The notes beneath the pieces are model-generated. The model was given only the letters and a program-made list of their open reading frames with translations, did not search any database and was not told the origin of the DNA. A program made the translations under genes and the position numbers. Positions 3 to 6,782 of a stretch of DNA of 32,499 bases are shown here, one piece after another; within the stretch, counting starts at the first letter, position 1, and the number at the start of each line of letters is the position of its first letter. The stretch covers positions 1-32,499 of the forward strand of contig JAIXUU010000293.1 of assembly GCA_027483405.1 (NCBI GenBank). The letters run 5' to 3'. This DNA comes from Planctomyces sp. GTDB taxonomy: Bacteria > Planctomycetota > Planctomycetia > Planctomycetales > Planctomycetaceae.

Positions 3-461
3 TCTGTCAGCCGAGCACTCAGTCAACTGGCCCGACAAGTCTCGACATTCCCTTCGATCACCGGCTCGGGTTATCTGCCCCTGGGCACAGGTTCTTTCCT
101 GCCGACTGGCACCGGCTCCTCTTTGACTGGTGGCGGCTCGACCACGACCACACGCCGCTTTGCCACGGGTCGACTCGTCTCGGGCCCACCCGGCATCGAC
201 CGCATCCCGGCTCTCCTCACGGCTGGTGAATATGTCCTGAGTTCCGAAGTCGTGCAGCGAATCGGGCTCGGAAATCTGTCGCAACTTTCAGCCGCCGCTG
301 CCGGTTCTTCCAGAGCCATAGCTCCACCAGCCACCGTGCAGAATTCCCACCATCAATCGATTGGCGAACTGCACGTTCACATGGCCCAGAACCTGGATCT
401 TGAATCATTCACGCAGAATCTGGCCGCCGATGCCCAAAGACTCCGCCATCGCCGCGGCTAA
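3..461 (+). CDS. Phage tail tape-measure-like protein, C-terminal part (5' end lies outside the window)
   Basis: Frame 3 is open from the window start to TAA at 459-461. The translation contains GPPGIDRIPALLTAGEYVLSSEVVQRIG, resembling the 'G(T/I)D.(V/I)PA.LT.GE(F/Y)V' motif common near the C-terminus of tape measure proteins. Confidence 0.65.
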   Translation, partial: SVSRALSQLARQVSTFPSITGSGYLPLGTGSFLPTGTGSSLTGGGSTTTTRRFATGRLVSGPPGIDRIPALLTAGEYVLSSEVVQRIGLGNLSQLSAAAAGSSRAIAPPATVQNSHHQSIGELHVHMAQNLDLESFTQNLAADAQRLRHRRG

Positions 462-465
462 GATC

Positions 466-525
466 CCCCTCTGGAACCCTCGCCCGCGTCCTTGTGGGCG
501 AGGGCAGTATGAGCGTGTTCTGTCT
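466..525 (+). repeat. Repeat family A copy 1 (CCCCTCTGGAACCCTCGCCC... stem-loop)
   Basis: cccctctggaaccctcgcccgcgtccttgtgggcgagggcagtatgagcg; same core as copies at 1278, 4865, 6781, 8545 and 12149. Confidence 0.8.
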
Positions 526-711: not shown

Positions 712-1152
712 ATGCCCCTCCAATTCCACCCGGCTATCGCCCGATCGACCGCCTGGTTCTCGCTCCCCCGGCCCATCGTTTCTCTTCGTGTGCAGGACGT
801 CTGGGATGCCGAGCGCTTCAAGTCTCCACTGATTGATGGCCAGCGCACGGTCGGTCATTCTCAAGGTGGCTCGACGATTGTCATTCAGGGACAGGTCGCT
901 GCCCAGGCGGAAGAAGTTCGTTTCACGGAAGCTGAGATGCTGGCCACACTGCTTTCTTTGCGTGAGGCCCTGCATGTGGGCGAGTCTCAGTCCAAGTTCG
1001 ACCTTGTGCTCTTTTTTGATCCCGTCACCCACGAGCGTCAATACTTCCAGGAGTGCTCGACGACCCGTTTGGAATGGGATCTCTCCGAAGCCAGCCTCTA
1101 CACCTATTCCCTCACGATCCAAGCCGACGATCCCCAGATTCACACCGCCTAA
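712..1152 (+). CDS. Hypothetical protein, possible phage tail-associated protein
   Basis: In-frame ATG at 712 within ORF 361..1152; MPLQFHPAIARSTAWFSLPRPIVSLRVQDVWDAERFKSPLIDG... The upstream part of the ORF translates intergenic repeats. It lies between tape-measure-like and tail-like genes. Confidence 0.55.
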   Translation: MPLQFHPAIARSTAWFSLPRPIVSLRVQDVWDAERFKSPLIDGQRTVGHSQGGSTIVIQGQVAAQAEEVRFTEAEMLATLLSLREALHVGESQSKFDLVLFFDPVTHERQYFQECSTTRLEWDLSEASLYTYSLTIQADDPQIHTA

Positions 1153-1683: not shown

Positions 1684-3489
1684 ATGCGCAACATCTTTCT
1701 CCATGCCGGCAGCCCCTCAGCAGCACCTCTCCTCATCGACCATCGCCTCGTCTCCAACTGCTGGTTCGAATGGCTCCGGCAAGGGGGCTGCGGCCCGGGC
1801 GAACTCGAATGCAATCTCCCCCTCGACAGCCCACTCTTCGCACCCGGCGATTTCGTCTCGATCGAAGATCATCTCGGCAACCGCTGGTACCTCGGACGCA
1901 TTGAAGAACATTTCACCCGCTGGCCCAACCGCGCCATCATTCGCCTGGAAGGCCTCGCGGTCGAACTGGGCGAAGTCTTCCCCGGCGGCTTTGCGAACAA
2001 CGAGACCGATGCTCCCGATCCTTATCGACTTGGGCTCACTGAAGGGGGTTTCTCCTTCGATCCCGATTATGGCAACGAATCCTTCGCCTTCGCTTCACGG
2101 CCGGAAGACGTCGTCCGCAAACTGCTCGAACTCGAAGAGATTGCCAGCACCCAAATCGCTTTCCCGCCCGAAGAAATCACCAACACCACTACTCCCGTCC
2201 CTTTGGAAAGCTTCAAGTTCCATGGGGAAGAGTCGCTTCGTTCGATCTTTAAAGATCTCGCTCTGAGGGCTGGCAATGCTCCCTGGGGTGTCGATGAAAT
2301 GGGCCGCTTCTTTTTCCGTGCCGGTCAGGAATTCTCGACACAGTCCATTCCTCGAACTTCGGTCATCCAGCTCGAACACTCCCGCAGTCTCGACCAGATC
2401 TTCAATCGCGTCCTGCTGACCGGGGCCTACCTTTATCTTCCCAATGGCCAGCCCTATCGCTGGCGTGGCAACTATACCGAACCGACCAGTCGAGCCTTGT
2501 ATGGCGAACGCCGCATTCGCTTGTGGGTTCCGTGGATTCGTACGGCTCAGGATGCCCGTGGCTTCCTCAAGGAATTCTTTTCGCAATATGCCTTTCCCAC
2601 AGGCCGCCTGCAGGTGGAGTCGGTCGCTTCGAGCCCATGGCTTCCCCCCTGGAAAACTCGCTATCAGATGGAAGGCTTTTCGGGATCCACCGGAGCCACC
2701 TGGCAGGCCGACAAGCTCCGCATCGAGTTCAATGAAACACCCGTCTACCGGCTCGAACTCGGCCCTGTTGATCCACGCACTCTCTGGCCAGAACCCGATC
2801 ACGATGAACGCTGGCCACTGGCACCCACCAGCGCACTCCCCTCGGGCTTTGGTGGCGAAGACATCCCCCTCCCCTGGCCTCCCGGCGGCGGTGGTGGCGG
2901 CAGTTCTTCCTCCAGCACCGACTCTCTCACTTCTGACGAACTCTCTTCCTCGCTCGCACTCTCTTCAAGTGAGGCCTCTTCCATCCTCGATAACTCTTCG
3001 AACTCCAGTTCATGGCTCACCAGCGACTCATCCGGCGATTCAACTTTCACCAGCAGCGATGCCAGTCACTCCTCATCGGCCACATCCAGCAGCACAGAAA
3101 ACTCCTCCAGCTGGCACTCCTCTTCGCTCTGGTCTTCTTCTGAGTCTCTCGAAAATTCATCATCGAACAGCGATTCGCTCTCCAGTACTTCGCTCGCCAG
3201 CGATCTCACTTCAAACCAAACCTCCAGCGAAGAAACACCCTCTAGCACAGAATCAGCAGCCACCCCCACCTCATTCGCACTTCCGACGGACGAACCAACC
3301 TCCACCCTCTCACCTCCCACCGATTCACCCACATCCTTCGAACCCCCTCACTCATTCGATTCGACAGAGACCGCTCCCCTCACGATCAGCAGTGAAGAGT
3401 CCGAATCTCCCTTCACTGAATCCTCCGCATCCACCACCAGCGAATCGTTAGAACTCCCCGTCAGTGTCCCTTCCGAAGATCTTCCTTAA
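1684..3489 (+). CDS. Putative phage tail/baseplate-hub-like protein with long Ser/Thr-rich C-terminal region
   Basis: 601-aa ORF. The N-terminal ~400 aa look globular (FVSIEDHLGNRWYLGRIEEHFTRWPNRAIIRLEGLAVELG). A poly-Gly linker is followed by ~200 aa dominated by Ser. Functional call rests on position after the tape measure gene. Confidence 0.55.
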   Translation: MRNIFLHAGSPSAAPLLIDHRLVSNCWFEWLRQGGCGPGELECNLPLDSPLFAPGDFVSIEDHLGNRWYLGRIEEHFTRWPNRAIIRLEGLAVELGEVFPGGFANNETDAPDPYRLGLTEGGFSFDPDYGNESFAFASRPEDVVRKLLELEEIASTQIAFPPEEITNTTTPVPLESFKFHGEESLRSIFKDLALRAGNAPWGVDEMGRFFFRAGQEFSTQSIPRTSVIQLEHSRSLDQIFNRVLLTGAYLYLPNGQPYRWRGNYTEPTSRALYGERRIRLWVPWIRTAQDARGFLKEFFSQYAFPTGRLQVESVASSPWLPPWKTRYQMEGFSGSTGATWQADKLRIEFNETPVYRLELGPVDPRTLWPEPDHDERWPLAPTSALPSGFGGEDIPLPWPPGGGGGGSSSSSTDSLTSDELSSSLALSSSEASSILDNSSNSSSWLTSDSSGDSTFTSSDASHSSSATSSSTENSSSWHSSSLWSSSESLENSSSNSDSLSSTSLASDLTSNQTSSEETPSSTESAATPTSFALPTDEPTSTLSPPTDSPTSFEPPHSFDSTETAPLTISSEESESPFTESSASTTSESLELPVSVPSEDLP

Positions 3490-3512
3490 GCCACTCAGCA
3501 ACCTCTCTCGGA

Positions 3513-4496
3513 ATGTTCTTTTTCCACCTCGAAAGCGCCACGGACATGTTCTATCGTTCGACCACCGATCAGCAATGGTCGCCGCTCGATCTCGAAAACC
3601 TCTACGCCGGCCCGCAAGGTTCCGCCTGCTGGCTCTTAGGTGGTGGCCCTTCACTCACCACTCTTCCACTCGAAAAAATTCGCTCGTCGCTGGCTCCCAT
3701 CATGGCCATCAACCTCGCAGGTCACGGCCACATCATCCCCGACTTCTGGACAGCCTACGACCCCACCACACGCTTCCTCCCGGCCAGCTACCGCACTCCC
3801 CGCACTCTCAAATTCATTCACAAAAGACGGGCGATGGATCTCCTCCCCGGCGACACCTTCAAACTCTGCGAATGCCCCGGCGTGGTCTTCTTCGAACACG
3901 AAAAACGCAACTTCTCCCACTCGTTCTCGCCAGCCGCTACTCGCATTCTCGACTGGAATGATTCCTTCATTCAGGCCCTCGACCTGCTCCTGCATCTCGG
4001 CTTTCGCACCATCTACCTCGCAGGCTGCGAACTCTACATCGCTCCCTCGACGGAACTCCAGCAACAGGCTCAGCAGCAGGGCCTCAATTACCAGCCCGGC
4101 CAATCGCTAAGGCTCTTCCTCGAAGCCTGCCGCAGCCAGAACATCGCCCCGGAACTCACGGAAACCGCCATCACCGGCCCTCAATATCACTTTGATGAAG
4201 CCAAGCCCCTGGCAGCGACCCTTCGCACCGACGACCACTACCAGCGCACCGTCCAGCTTCTCAGACTCTCACGCCAGGCACTGACACAAACGGGCCTGAA
4301 GCTCATCTCCGTCACACCCCTCAGTCGCCTCAACGATTACTTCCCTTTTCAAGATGTCGAAAACGTCCTAGAAAATCTCGCCCACATCCAGGGCCCACCA
4401 GCACATCAGCAGACCCGCGGCCTCTACACCGGCCAACCCATCATGGCCCCACAACTCACCTGTCCCATGCGCGACCTCAAAGCCCCCATCGCGTAA
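3513..4496 (+). CDS. DUF115 / MptE-like (MAF_flag10-type) family protein
   Basis: CWLLGGGPSLTTLPLEKI...APIMAINLAGHGHIIPDFWTAYDPTTRF...LDLLLHLGFRTIYLAGCELYI resembles the family pattern GGGPSL / N / YL.G.D. Confidence 0.6.
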   Translation: MFFFHLESATDMFYRSTTDQQWSPLDLENLYAGPQGSACWLLGGGPSLTTLPLEKIRSSLAPIMAINLAGHGHIIPDFWTAYDPTTRFLPASYRTPRTLKFIHKRRAMDLLPGDTFKLCECPGVVFFEHEKRNFSHSFSPAATRILDWNDSFIQALDLLLHLGFRTIYLAGCELYIAPSTELQQQAQQQGLNYQPGQSLRLFLEACRSQNIAPELTETAITGPQYHFDEAKPLAATLRTDDHYQRTVQLLRLSRQALTQTGLKLISVTPLSRLNDYFPFQDVENVLENLAHIQGPPAHQQTRGLYTGQPIMAPQLTCPMRDLKAPIA

Positions 4497-4518
4497 GGAG
4501 TCACCAGCATATTCTTCG

Positions 4519-4551
4519 TGCCATGCTTGCGGCCCCGAGCAAGCATGCTCT
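4519..4551 (+). repeat. Repeat family C copy 1 (GTGCCATGCTTGC...GCAAGCATG hairpin)
   Basis: catgcttgc (4522-4530) / gcaagcatg (4539-4547), 8-nt spacer. Confidence 0.8.
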
Positions 4552-4578
4552 GCACCTGCTGATGGGTGACGAGACATA

Positions 4579-4672
4579 GGGTGTTGGGTGTTTGGAATTT
4601 GGTATTCGGTATTCGGTGTTTGGTGTTTGGTTTTGGGAAGTTGGTAGTTGGGTGTTGGGTATTGGGTGGCAC
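4579..4672 (+). repeat. Degenerate short (6-8 nt) tandem repeat tract, G/T-rich strand
   Basis: ggtgttgggtgtttggaatttggtattcggtattcggtgtttggtgtttggttttgggaagttggtagttgggtgttgggtattgggtgg. Confidence 0.8.
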
Positions 4673-4751
4673 GTCCCTGAAGCCCCAAAAAAATCAAAAC
4701 AGTGCGCAAGGGCGTGGTCTTTACGCTCTCAAACTCTCTTTTGATGTCCAG

Positions 4752-4790
4752 CCGGGTGGCCCGGCCAACTCGTGGCCGGGTTGTCGTGCG
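4752..4790 (+). repeat. Repeat family D-like hairpin (GGGTGGCCCGGCCA...TGGCCGGG)
   Basis: ccgggtggcccggccaactcgtggccgggttgtcgtgcg; shares the CCGGGTGGCCC head with 16420ff. Confidence 0.55.
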
Positions 4791-4864
4791 AAAGCAAGAC
4801 AACAAGAAGCCGCGCCATGCGTTCAACCTGCCACGCACCATTCATTCTACGACCCGTCCAACTG

Positions 4865-4920
4865 CCCCTCTGGAACCCTCGCCCGGTCTTCCAGGAGAGG
4901 ACAGGGTGAGGGTCTTCTGC
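4865..4920 (+). repeat. Repeat family A copy 3
   Basis: cccctctggaaccctcgcccggtcttccaggagaggacagggtgagggtcttctgc. Confidence 0.8.
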
Positions 4921-4926
4921 CTTTGT

Positions 4927-4960
4927 TGTAGGATGCCATGCAGCGCCAGCGGAATGCTCC
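4927..4960 (+). repeat. Repeat family B copy 2
   Basis: tgtaggatgccatgcagcgccagcggaatgctcc, aligned with 535-568. Confidence 0.7.
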
Positions 4961-5058
4961 ACCTTCCTGCCTTCTTCCCTACCCTAGAGCCTCTTGTCTT
5001 GCCCCCCTCCCTGCTTTATCCCCCCTTCCAACCTTCTCCCCTTCTCCGGCCCCCGTTC

Positions 5059-5766
5059 ATGCCCAACTCCGTCGCCCGCCAGGTGACTGTCGTTATCCCG
5101 GTCTATGGCAGCCTCGATCATCTCCAGAAATGCCTCGCTTCACTCCTCGCCTGGCATCATGTTCCCATCCTCCTCATCGATGACGGAAACCCACCCGGCA
5201 CACTCCAGCACTTCGCTTCTCAACCTGGCCTCAAAATCATCCGCCAGCCCCATCGAGGAGTCACCCACGCCTGGAACAGCGGCATCGCCGCCGTCCGCAC
5301 ACCCTGCGTCATCCTGCTCAACAGCGATGTCATCACCAGCGGCCCCTGGATCAAACAACTCATCGAACCTCTGCGGGCAACAGAATCATCACTCTCCACC
5401 CTGATTCAACTCACCGGTGCTGCCTGGCAATCGCCCACTGCCTCAGCCAGTGTCGGCATGCCGGCCCAAAGCCTGCTCGCCGGCTGGTGCCTCGCCTTCC
5501 GCAAGTCACTCTGGCACCACTTAAGACACTTCGACGAACGCTTCCGCCACTGGTATTCCGATACCGATTTCCAACAACGCCTGCTGGTCACATCCTCCGC
5601 ACATCACACTTCCACAAGTCCTATCCGCTGCATCGACACACTCCCATTGAGTCACGCACTCCACGCCTCGACCCAACATCTCCCCGCTCGCTCACAACTC
5701 TACGCTCTCGATCGAACCGCTTACTTCCAGAAGTGGCAGCCTGAAGGCCATCGACCATGCACCTGA
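5059..5766 (+). CDS. Family 2 (GT-A fold) glycosyltransferase
   Basis: VTVVIPVYGSLDHLQKCLASLL...ILLIDDGNPPGTLQ...HRGVTHAWNSGIAAVRTPCVILLNSDVITSGPWIKQL is a clear GT2 N-terminal pattern. ATG at 5059 is in frame; the upstream part of ORF 4702..5766 translates repeats. Confidence 0.85.
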   Translation: MPNSVARQVTVVIPVYGSLDHLQKCLASLLAWHHVPILLIDDGNPPGTLQHFASQPGLKIIRQPHRGVTHAWNSGIAAVRTPCVILLNSDVITSGPWIKQLIEPLRATESSLSTLIQLTGAAWQSPTASASVGMPAQSLLAGWCLAFRKSLWHHLRHFDERFRHWYSDTDFQQRLLVTSSAHHTSTSPIRCIDTLPLSHALHASTQHLPARSQLYALDRTAYFQKWQPEGHRPCT

Positions 5767-6782
5767 TTCAAGTCATCAACGTCGGCCAGATTGTGGGTGG
5801 CACAGCCGCCTGTGCCTGGTCTGTCACGCGGGCACTTCCCGATGTTCAGCACAGCCTCTTTTCACTCAGTCCCATCTCACGCGAAACTCAGGCAGCCTTT
5901 GCTCCCGTTCCCATCCAATCACTCGCCGGTAGCAATCTCTCCCAGTTTCAAGCGGCACTGTGCGAACATGTCCAGCAAATTCGAGACGCGGGCGAACAGC
6001 CCCAACTCCTCCTGCACAACACTCATGCCCGCTGGCAACTCGCGCGCTGGCCTTGCCCCACGCTGATTTACGCGCATTCAAACACTTCACTGGTCAAGGC
6101 CCATCAACTCATCGTCTGTTCCCACTGGCTCAAACAACAGGCCCGGCTCGCAGGAACAGTCCTCTGGCAAGGTGTGCCCGATCCCCACGACATTCCACCA
6201 CCAATCGGCTCATCCATCACCCCGCCAGCCGGTGCATTCCGCGTCGGTCGCCTCTGCACTCCCACAGTGAAAAAATTTCCCGCAGAACTCATCCCGCTCT
6301 ATGCCCACTGGGCGAAACAGTTCCCGCAGATCTGGTGGGAATTCGTAGGCTGCCCCACGCTTCGCCAGCCCGCCTTGACCGAAGCCTGCATGGGACGCAT
6401 TACCTTCCATCCCGCCGGTTGGTCAGCCCGACACTGGCTTTGCCAATGGGATGCCTGGCTCTATACCCAGCCCGCGATCCACGAGAGCTTCGGCCGCGTT
6501 CTGGCGGAAGCCATGCTCGCCGGCACATTTCCCATCTGCGATGCCCAGGGCGGCTTCTGTGAACAGTTTCCGATGACCAGCGAATTCCCGGTGGAAGCAG
6601 GTACAAAGCGCCAGCGCGGCCAATGCCATTCCCCCGCCGACTTCTCCGCCGATCTCCACTGGATGATCACCCAGCCCGCCCCCTGCCAATCCCTTCGCCA
6701 GACTCTGCAAAGCCACGCAGGAAAGCATTTCTCCCTCCCCGCCTTCGCCATCCGCCTCAAACAACTCCTGCCCCTTGCTTGA
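5757..6782 (+). CDS. Glycosyltransferase, group 1/GT4-like
   Basis: Starts inside the end of the preceding GT2 gene. C-terminal pattern YTQPAIHESFGRVLAEAMLAGTFPICDAQGGFCEQF matches the GT-B motif 'ESFGRV.AEAMA.G.P'. Confidence 0.7.
   Translation: MHLIQVINVGQIVGGTAACAWSVTRALPDVQHSLFSLSPISRETQAAFAPVPIQSLAGSNLSQFQAALCEHVQQIRDAGEQPQLLLHNTHARWQLARWPCPTLIYAHSNTSLVKAHQLIVCSHWLKQQARLAGTVLWQGVPDPHDIPPPIGSSITPPAGAFRVGRLCTPTVKKFPAELIPLYAHWAKQFPQIWWEFVGCPTLRQPALTEACMGRITFHPAGWSARHWLCQWDAWLYTQPAIHESFGRVLAEAMLAGTFPICDAQGGFCEQFPMTSEFPVEAGTKRQRGQCHSPADFSADLHWMITQPAPCQSLRQTLQSHAGKHFSLPAFAIRLKQLLPLA

What the first reader, a model, noticed from the sequence alone, without database searches (positions are those of the whole stretch)
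1684..6782. Candidate tail/adhesin glycosylation module: Ser-rich tail-like protein next to DUF115 and two glycosyltransferases
Seen: the protein at 1684-3489 ends in ~200 aa dominated by Ser, with Thr and few hydrophobics. It is followed on the same strand by a DUF115-like protein, a GT2 protein and a GT4-like protein, the last two overlapping. Known: PF01973 (DUF115/MAF_flag10) occurs in Maf proteins linked to flagellin glycosylation, and mucin-like Ser-rich regions in bacterial adhesins are often O-glycosylated by adjacent GTs. Inference: these genes may decorate the Ser-rich tail of a phage or phage-derived tail structure.
Basis: partly seen in the sequence, partly recalled or inferred. 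Interest (0 to 1): 0.72.

Follow-up and report, generated by a model that had tools for sequence, protein, structure and literature searches.

The report
Glycosylated-tail gene-transfer-agent-like cluster in Planctomycetaceae
These genes are the tail end of an old phage that one family of planctomycete bacteria has kept and passed from parent to offspring, probably to make DNA-carrying particles, with its own sugar-transferring enzymes likely coating the serine-rich tail tip.

Summary
The 601-aa protein at 1684-3489 is a phage baseplate hub (AlphaFold/Foldseek best hit Mu gp44, E 7e-17) with a ~200-aa Ser/Thr-rich C-terminus. It is followed by a DUF115/MptE-fold protein, a GT2 and a GT4.

Comparative work shows a larger unit. 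In about 30 Planctomycetaceae genomes the genes end a conserved single-copy cluster: portal, protease/scaffold, cement, major capsid protein, neck, tube, ~240-aa tape measure, hub, DUF115, [GT2], GT4, with TerL often elsewhere. The cluster is vertically inherited, under purifying selection and sometimes scattered over distant loci. No integration or replication genes were noticed. Phage-like relatives have a 985-aa tape measure. It is best read as an unreported gene-transfer-agent-like (GTA-like) element. No close relative was found in INPHARED; one IMG/VR contig is the cluster itself.

DUF115 occurs in 32 of 33 hub-bearing and 0 of 40 hub-less family genomes, including 0 of 8 that kept the capsid but lost the tail. 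This ties it to the hub. The Ser/Thr composition persists while the sequence turns over. GT2 and GT4 are common but not universal.

Glycosylation of the hub and DNA transfer are inferred, not shown.

The parts
3..461 (+). C-terminal part of a tape-measure-like protein (5' part lies on contig C84 of the same genome)
   Evidence: TMP_c6 profile hit; full-length homologues 223-308 aa match PHROG tape-measure families
712..1152 (+). c7, conserved ~146-aa protein between tape measure and hub (distal-tail position)
   Evidence: present in 28/30 relatives; dN/dS 0.05-0.10; no Pfam/PHROG name
1684..2877 (+). baseplate hub core (gp27/gp44-like) of the tail
   Evidence: AF2 pLDDT 86; Foldseek best hit Mu gp44 1wru E 6.9e-17; 27-sequence alignment
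2878..3489 (+). Ser/Thr-rich mucin-like C-terminal extension of the hub
   Evidence: ~36% Ser, ~12% Thr, all six Ser codons; composition conserved, sequence not
3546..4496 (+). DUF115/MptE-like protein, candidate glycosyltransferase acting on the hub (ORF could start at 3513)
   Evidence: Foldseek to viral MptE-like/DUF115 proteins E 5e-7 to 1e-4, a herpesvirus sialyltransferase E 1e-3; 32/33 hub+ and 0/40 hub- family genomes
5059..5766 (+). GT2-family glycosyltransferase (listed ORF 4702-5766 over-extends upstream)
   Evidence: PF00535 E 3.5e-16; homologues in 18 of 30 loci; N-[NS]-D motif kept in nearly all
5757..6782 (+). GT4-family glycosyltransferase, overlaps the GT2 stop
   Evidence: PF00534 E 2.3e-6; homologues in 23 of 30 loci; ESFGRxxAEA (EX7E) motif in 20 of 23

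Best explanation
The genes are the 3' end of a domesticated siphophage-derived cluster, ancestral in much of Planctomycetaceae, that most likely makes small gene-transfer-agent-like particles with a short tail. The 1684-3489 protein is the tail-tip hub. Its folded N-terminal half plugs the tail, and its Ser/Thr-rich C-terminus hangs outward where a receptor-binding fibre would be. The DUF115-fold protein, made from the next gene, most likely O-glycosylates Ser/Thr residues of that extension. The GT2 and GT4, where present, extend or vary the glycan, giving a mucin-like adhesive or shielding tip. Shown: gene order, conservation, fold of the hub, DUF115 fold class, vertical signal, purifying selection, hub-DUF115 co-occurrence. 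Inferred: particle production, DNA packaging and transfer, acceptor = the Ser/Thr tail, sugar identity, adhesive role.
For: Colinear cluster portal-protease-cement-MCP-...-tube-TMP-c7-hub-DUF115-[GT2]-GT4 in 30 genomes, with portal PF05136 E 1e-30, MCP PF25209 E 1.5e-18, neck and tape-measure PHROG hits, TerL PF03354. Single copy per genome. Walker A intact in 25/25 TerLs and the Walker B region (CDE) near-invariant. Gene distances follow rpoB: hub r 0.39, MCP 0.50, TerL 0.48, each 0/2000 permutations. dN/dS: MCP 0.03, portal 0.07, hub core 0.08-0.11, DUF115 0.09-0.19, with dS like rpoB. Domestication marks: TerL unlinked by 33 kb to several hundred kb in many genomes; capsid genes about 3.6 Mb from the tail genes in G007 and likewise split in G062; TMP ~240 aa against 985 aa in a phage-like relative with exonuclease and dNMP kinase genes. 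DUF115 tied to the hub: 32/33 against 0/40 (Fisher 6e-20), and 28/29 against 0/8 among capsid-bearing genomes. DUF115 distances track the hub, r 0.84. Published Maf enzymes (recalled to be PF01973-related) O-glycosylate Ser/Thr of flagellins (PMC11339370, abstract).
Against: No biochemical data. PF01973 match is below Pfam's cut-off, NCBIfam gives nothing for DUF115, and no PDB fold match is better than 1e-3; MptE-type members of the family are diphosphokinases. Genera g5 and g12 keep a Ser-rich tail and DUF115 without GT2/GT4. G054 has the GTs but no Ser-rich tail, G052 has DUF115 but no Ser-rich tail. GT2/GT4 distances do not clearly follow rpoB. No lysis gene was identified. The Fisher tests treat related genomes as independent.
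Confidence: 0.6

Rival explanations
1. The particle is real and domesticated, but DUF115 and the GTs do not modify the hub. They modify the producer's cell-surface glycans (receptor masking) or another particle protein.
For: Phage-encoded GTs often alter host surface glycans (recalled knowledge). GT2 and GT4 are not universal and evolve faster (dN/dS 0.2-0.5).
Against: DUF115 directly follows the hub in 28/29 testable genomes, is absent where the tail is lost but the capsid kept (0/8), and its distances track the hub (r 0.84).
Confidence: 0.2
2. The Ser-rich C-terminus is only a flexible, unmodified linker or stalk carrying variable receptor-binding domains.
For: Several hubs have a further, apparently folded segment after the Ser-rich part (G021, G068, G026, G046, L144, L148), and G052, G054 and G037 carry such a segment with little Ser.
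Against: Most hubs end in the Ser/Thr-rich region. G006 swapped much Ser for Thr (28% Thr), keeping hydroxyl content. DUF115 is a near-constant partner.
Confidence: 0.2
3. Active or recently decayed prophage.
For: Structural genes are phage-like; the window begins inside the tape measure.
Against: Single copy, vertical signal, dS like rpoB, strong purifying selection, unlinked TerL, no match in INPHARED; one IMG/VR contig (L178) is the cluster itself.
Confidence: 0.04
4. Tailocin or other capsid-less injection device.
For: Hub fold is shared with contractile injection systems.
Against: MCP, portal and TerL are conserved; MCP and TerL co-occur in 35 genomes; eight genomes keep the capsid and lose the tail; no sheath protein was noticed.
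Confidence: 0.05
5. Headed particle used for something other than DNA transfer (storage compartment, kin interaction, adhesion).
For: Head-only lineages G010, G018, G020, G024, G025, G060, G063, G066 show the capsid can be kept without a recognisable tail.
Against: TerL with intact motifs is kept along with MCP in those lineages (motifs in 25 other TerLs).
Confidence: 0.2

Closest known systems
Rhodobacter capsulatus GTA (RcGTA, Rhodogtaviriformidae)
   Same: Siphophage-derived, vertically inherited structural cluster; some genes dispersed (PMC9662315); very short tape measure (N-terminal 113-residue helix, then 83 and 20 residues; PMC7296036); carbohydrate-directed tail tip
   Different: Different host phylum; hub with Ser-rich extension followed by DUF115/GT genes; TerL unlinked in many genomes; sequence relation of capsid and hub to RcGTA not tested directly
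Bartonella and Brachyspira GTAs (the other two formally recognised GTA families, PMC9662315)
   Same: Independent exaptation of a tailed phage by one bacterial lineage
   Different: No sequence relation tested here; no glycosylation genes recalled
Maf (motility-associated factor) flagellin glycosyltransferases
   Same: DUF115-class protein next to a Ser/Thr-rich extracellular acceptor; Maf O-glycosylates Ser/Thr of flagellins (PMC11339370)
   Different: Only a sub-threshold PF01973 match; acceptor would be a phage-type hub; sugar donor unknown
Mu gp44 / T4 gp27 / HFTV1 baseplate hub proteins
   Same: Fold of residues 1-399 (weak sequence hit to 9h4p_BD)
   Different: Ser/Thr-rich mucin-like C-terminal extension; ~8-13% identity
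Phage-like contigs L179/L180 in IMG/VR
   Same: Related protease, cement, MCP (48-50% identity), tube
   Different: 985-aa tape measure (L180), exonuclease and dNMP kinase genes

Membership tests
Gene transfer agent | Phage-derived head, packaging and tail genes | tested here: met
Gene transfer agent | Vertical inheritance with the host, conserved under selection | tested here: met
Gene transfer agent | Cluster lacks self-propagation genes (integrase, replication) and may be split over loci | tested here: met
   Gene maps show host-like genes at the borders and split loci; flanks were not scanned exhaustively in every genome
Gene transfer agent | Particles package random host DNA | not testable with these tools
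   needs particle purification and sequencing
Gene transfer agent | Transfers genes to recipient cells | not testable with these tools
   needs marker-transfer assay
Maf/DUF115 glycosyltransferase | Passes PF01973 (MptE-like) gathering score | tested here: not met
   16.3 bits against 34.6
Maf/DUF115 glycosyltransferase | DUF115/MptE fold | tested here: met
   Foldseek to BFVD MptE-like/DUF115 proteins, E 5e-7 to 1e-4; PDB search inconclusive
Maf/DUF115 glycosyltransferase | Transfers a sugar to Ser/Thr of an extracellular protein | not testable with these tools
   biochemistry needed
Baseplate hub (gp27/gp44) | Hub fold and position after tape measure/distal tail gene | tested here: met
Prophage | Integration or replication genes, mobile insertion sites | tested here: not met
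Tailocin | Tail genes without capsid or terminase | tested here: not met
   MCP, portal, TerL conserved

The most novel reading that the evidence does not exclude
An unrecognised, independently domesticated GTA lineage in Planctomycetota whose particles carry a dedicated mucin-like, O-glycosylated tail tip. In the same family, side lineages have pared the element down to a tailless capsid plus terminase.
Probability: 0.4. Interest if true: 0.88.

Novelty: new variant of a known kind. Interest (0 to 1): 0.76.

Why it matters
The three formally classified GTA families come from Alphaproteobacteria (two) and spirochaetes (PMC9662315). I found no paper in the held library describing one in Planctomycetota. 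A family-wide, ancient, vertically inherited GTA-like element would give a route for gene exchange in these bacteria. It would also be the first case I know of where such an element carries genes that apparently glycosylate its own tail tip.

Tried and rejected
PDB profile search with the DUF115 alignment: no match. PDB fold search with the DUF115 model: nothing better than E 1e-3. Pfam and PHROG gave no usable name for the whole hub. Pfam on six variable hub C-terminal segments: no match (the first residues of the G052 segment were mistyped, so that one is not used). A strict 'Ser-rich tail requires GT2/GT4' rule was rejected by genera g5 and g12 and by G054. Prophage and tailocin readings were rejected on gene content and inheritance. 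Searches for the hub and MCP in INPHARED: no match.

Full report
OBSERVATION. ORF 1684-3489 is coding and single copy. Its first 399 aa align with 26 relatives with many invariant positions and evolve under constraint. The C-terminal ~200 aa are ~36% Ser and ~12% Thr. All six Ser codons are used and the other frames do not show the bias, so the bias is selected at protein level. Three same-strand genes follow: a DUF115-class protein, a GT2 and a GT4. Homology puts the likely starts at 3546 (DUF115) and about 5059 (GT2). The window is a complete 32.5-kb contig (C373). It opens inside a tape-measure-like gene whose upstream genes (MCP, c4, neck, tube, TMP start) sit on contig C84.

WHAT THE UNIT IS. 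The hub core occurs in 33 of 119 relatives, once per genome apart from fragments, at ~40-46% identity between genera. In the genomes sampled it is confined to the same family. It has no INPHARED match, and its one full-length IMG/VR match is itself the chromosomal cluster. Gene maps of ten relatives, then profile searches over 30 genomes, show one colinear cluster: portal, protease/scaffold, cement, MCP, c4, c14, c17, neck, c5, tube, TMP, c7, hub, DUF115, [GT2], GT4. Names rest on Pfam and PHROG for portal, MCP, cement (weak), neck, TMP and TerL, and on fold for the hub: AlphaFold pLDDT 86, Foldseek to Mu gp44 and many baseplate hubs. 'Protease/scaffold' and 'tube' are positional guesses. No integrase or replication gene was noticed in the cluster; genes at the borders look like ordinary host genes.

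DOMESTICATION. Five lines of evidence. (i) Distances of hub, MCP and TerL follow rpoB, 0/2000 permutations each, and hub and rpoB trees share deep splits. (ii) Within the genus, MCP, portal, tube and hub core have dN/dS 0.03-0.11 at about the same dS as rpoB. (iii) TerL is near the portal in G004, G016, G027, G046 and G052 but 33 to 466 kb away in complete genomes such as G001, G002, G007, G021, G042, G068 and G072, or on another contig. In genus g5 the capsid genes sit alone between an FtsH-like gene and a response regulator, about 3.6 Mb from the tail genes in G007 by contig coordinates. (iv) The tape measure is 223-308 aa in called ORFs. Phage-like relatives L179/L180, which carry exonuclease and nucleotide-metabolism genes, have a tape measure of 985 aa where complete. 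A short tape measure is also a feature of RcGTA (PMC7296036). (v) TerL Walker A is intact in 25 of 25 and the Walker B region near-invariant. Together these fit a GTA-like element better than a prophage, a tailocin or a decayed relic. Packaging and transfer were not testable.

THE GLYCOSYLATION MODULE. DUF115 directly follows the hub in 28 of 29 testable genomes. Among 73 family genomes sampled, DUF115 is present in 32 of 33 with the hub and 0 of 40 without (Fisher 6e-20; relatedness not corrected; a weak partial hit in G025, E 1e-15, not counted). Eight genomes kept MCP and TerL but lost the hub and tube; none has DUF115. DUF115 distances track the hub (r 0.84). The DUF115 model resembles viral MptE-like/DUF115 proteins and, marginally, a viral sialyltransferase. 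GT4 is found in 23 of 30 loci and GT2 in 18, with catalytic-type motifs kept in most. They evolve faster than the structural genes.

The Ser/Thr composition of the hub tail persists across some 25 genera although the sequence is not conserved; G006 uses much Thr (28%). Exceptions are informative: G037 lacks both a Ser-rich tail and all three enzymes; G052 has DUF115 but little Ser; G054 has the enzymes but little Ser; g5 and g12 have a Ser-rich tail and DUF115 without GT2/GT4. The simplest reading is that DUF115 is the dedicated hub-modifying enzyme, with GT2/GT4 as optional glycan-extending enzymes.

MECHANISM (inferred). The hub closes the tail; its extension projects outward; DUF115 places the first sugar on Ser/Thr before or during assembly; GT4, with or without GT2, elaborates it; the glycan brush helps attachment to planctomycete surfaces or protects the tip. 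Rapid turnover of the tail and of the GTs fits a surface under diversifying pressure.

NOVELTY. GTAs and Maf-type enzymes are known kinds. A GTA-like lineage in Planctomycetota with a dedicated tail-tip glycosylation module was not found in the held library. PMC7947584 mentions only a Zavarzinella prophage TerL near RcGTA-like TerLs; its relation to this cluster was not tested. Hence 'new variant of a known kind'.

Noticed in passing
L153:1339-5406, L165:7341-10752, L178:1-3049 and 10 other TerL loci: TerL is accompanied upstream by an ABC-type ATPase and a GNAT-fold gene in 13/13 loci tested (one ORF in G004, G016, G052), often with a ParB-like gene, whether or not TerL is linked to the capsid cluster. 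GNAT coupled to an ABC ATPase has been predicted to be a DNA-base acyl-modification system (PMC7824862), so packaged DNA may be modified.
   Followed up: partly
L191, L192, L193, L194, L195, L197 (G018, G066, G010, G025, G024, G063): Lineages that keep TerL and capsid genes with MCP at 60-74% identity, but have host-like genes where the tail should be; hub and tube not found in the genome. Possible tailless-capsid elements.
   Followed up: partly
G028, G037, G052: Tube and tape measure not detectable although hub and capsid are kept: apparent stepwise tail reduction.
   Followed up: no
L178 (IMGVR_UViG_3300048836_001244): IMG/VR 'viral' contig is the chromosomal GTA-like cluster itself, including the ATPase-GNAT-TerL genes.
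   Followed up: partly
window 471-485, 1284-1298, 4870-4884: A dispersed host repeat (CTGGAACCCTCGCCC, 17 exact copies in the genome, reversed control 0) sits in gaps between the tail genes.
   Followed up: partly
L184, L185 (family f5), L183 (f7), L198 (f8): Distant or partial capsid clusters with 28-51% identical MCPs in other planctomycete families; could be separate prophages or domesticated elements.
   Followed up: no
G026:C58:72131-76035: Hub, DUF115, GT2 and GT4 kept although the MCP gene is reduced to its last ~23 codons near the hub and TerL was not found.
   Followed up: no
G041:C198:2072-3106: Second, more divergent DUF115 paralogue (E 2e-95) away from the cluster.
   Followed up: no
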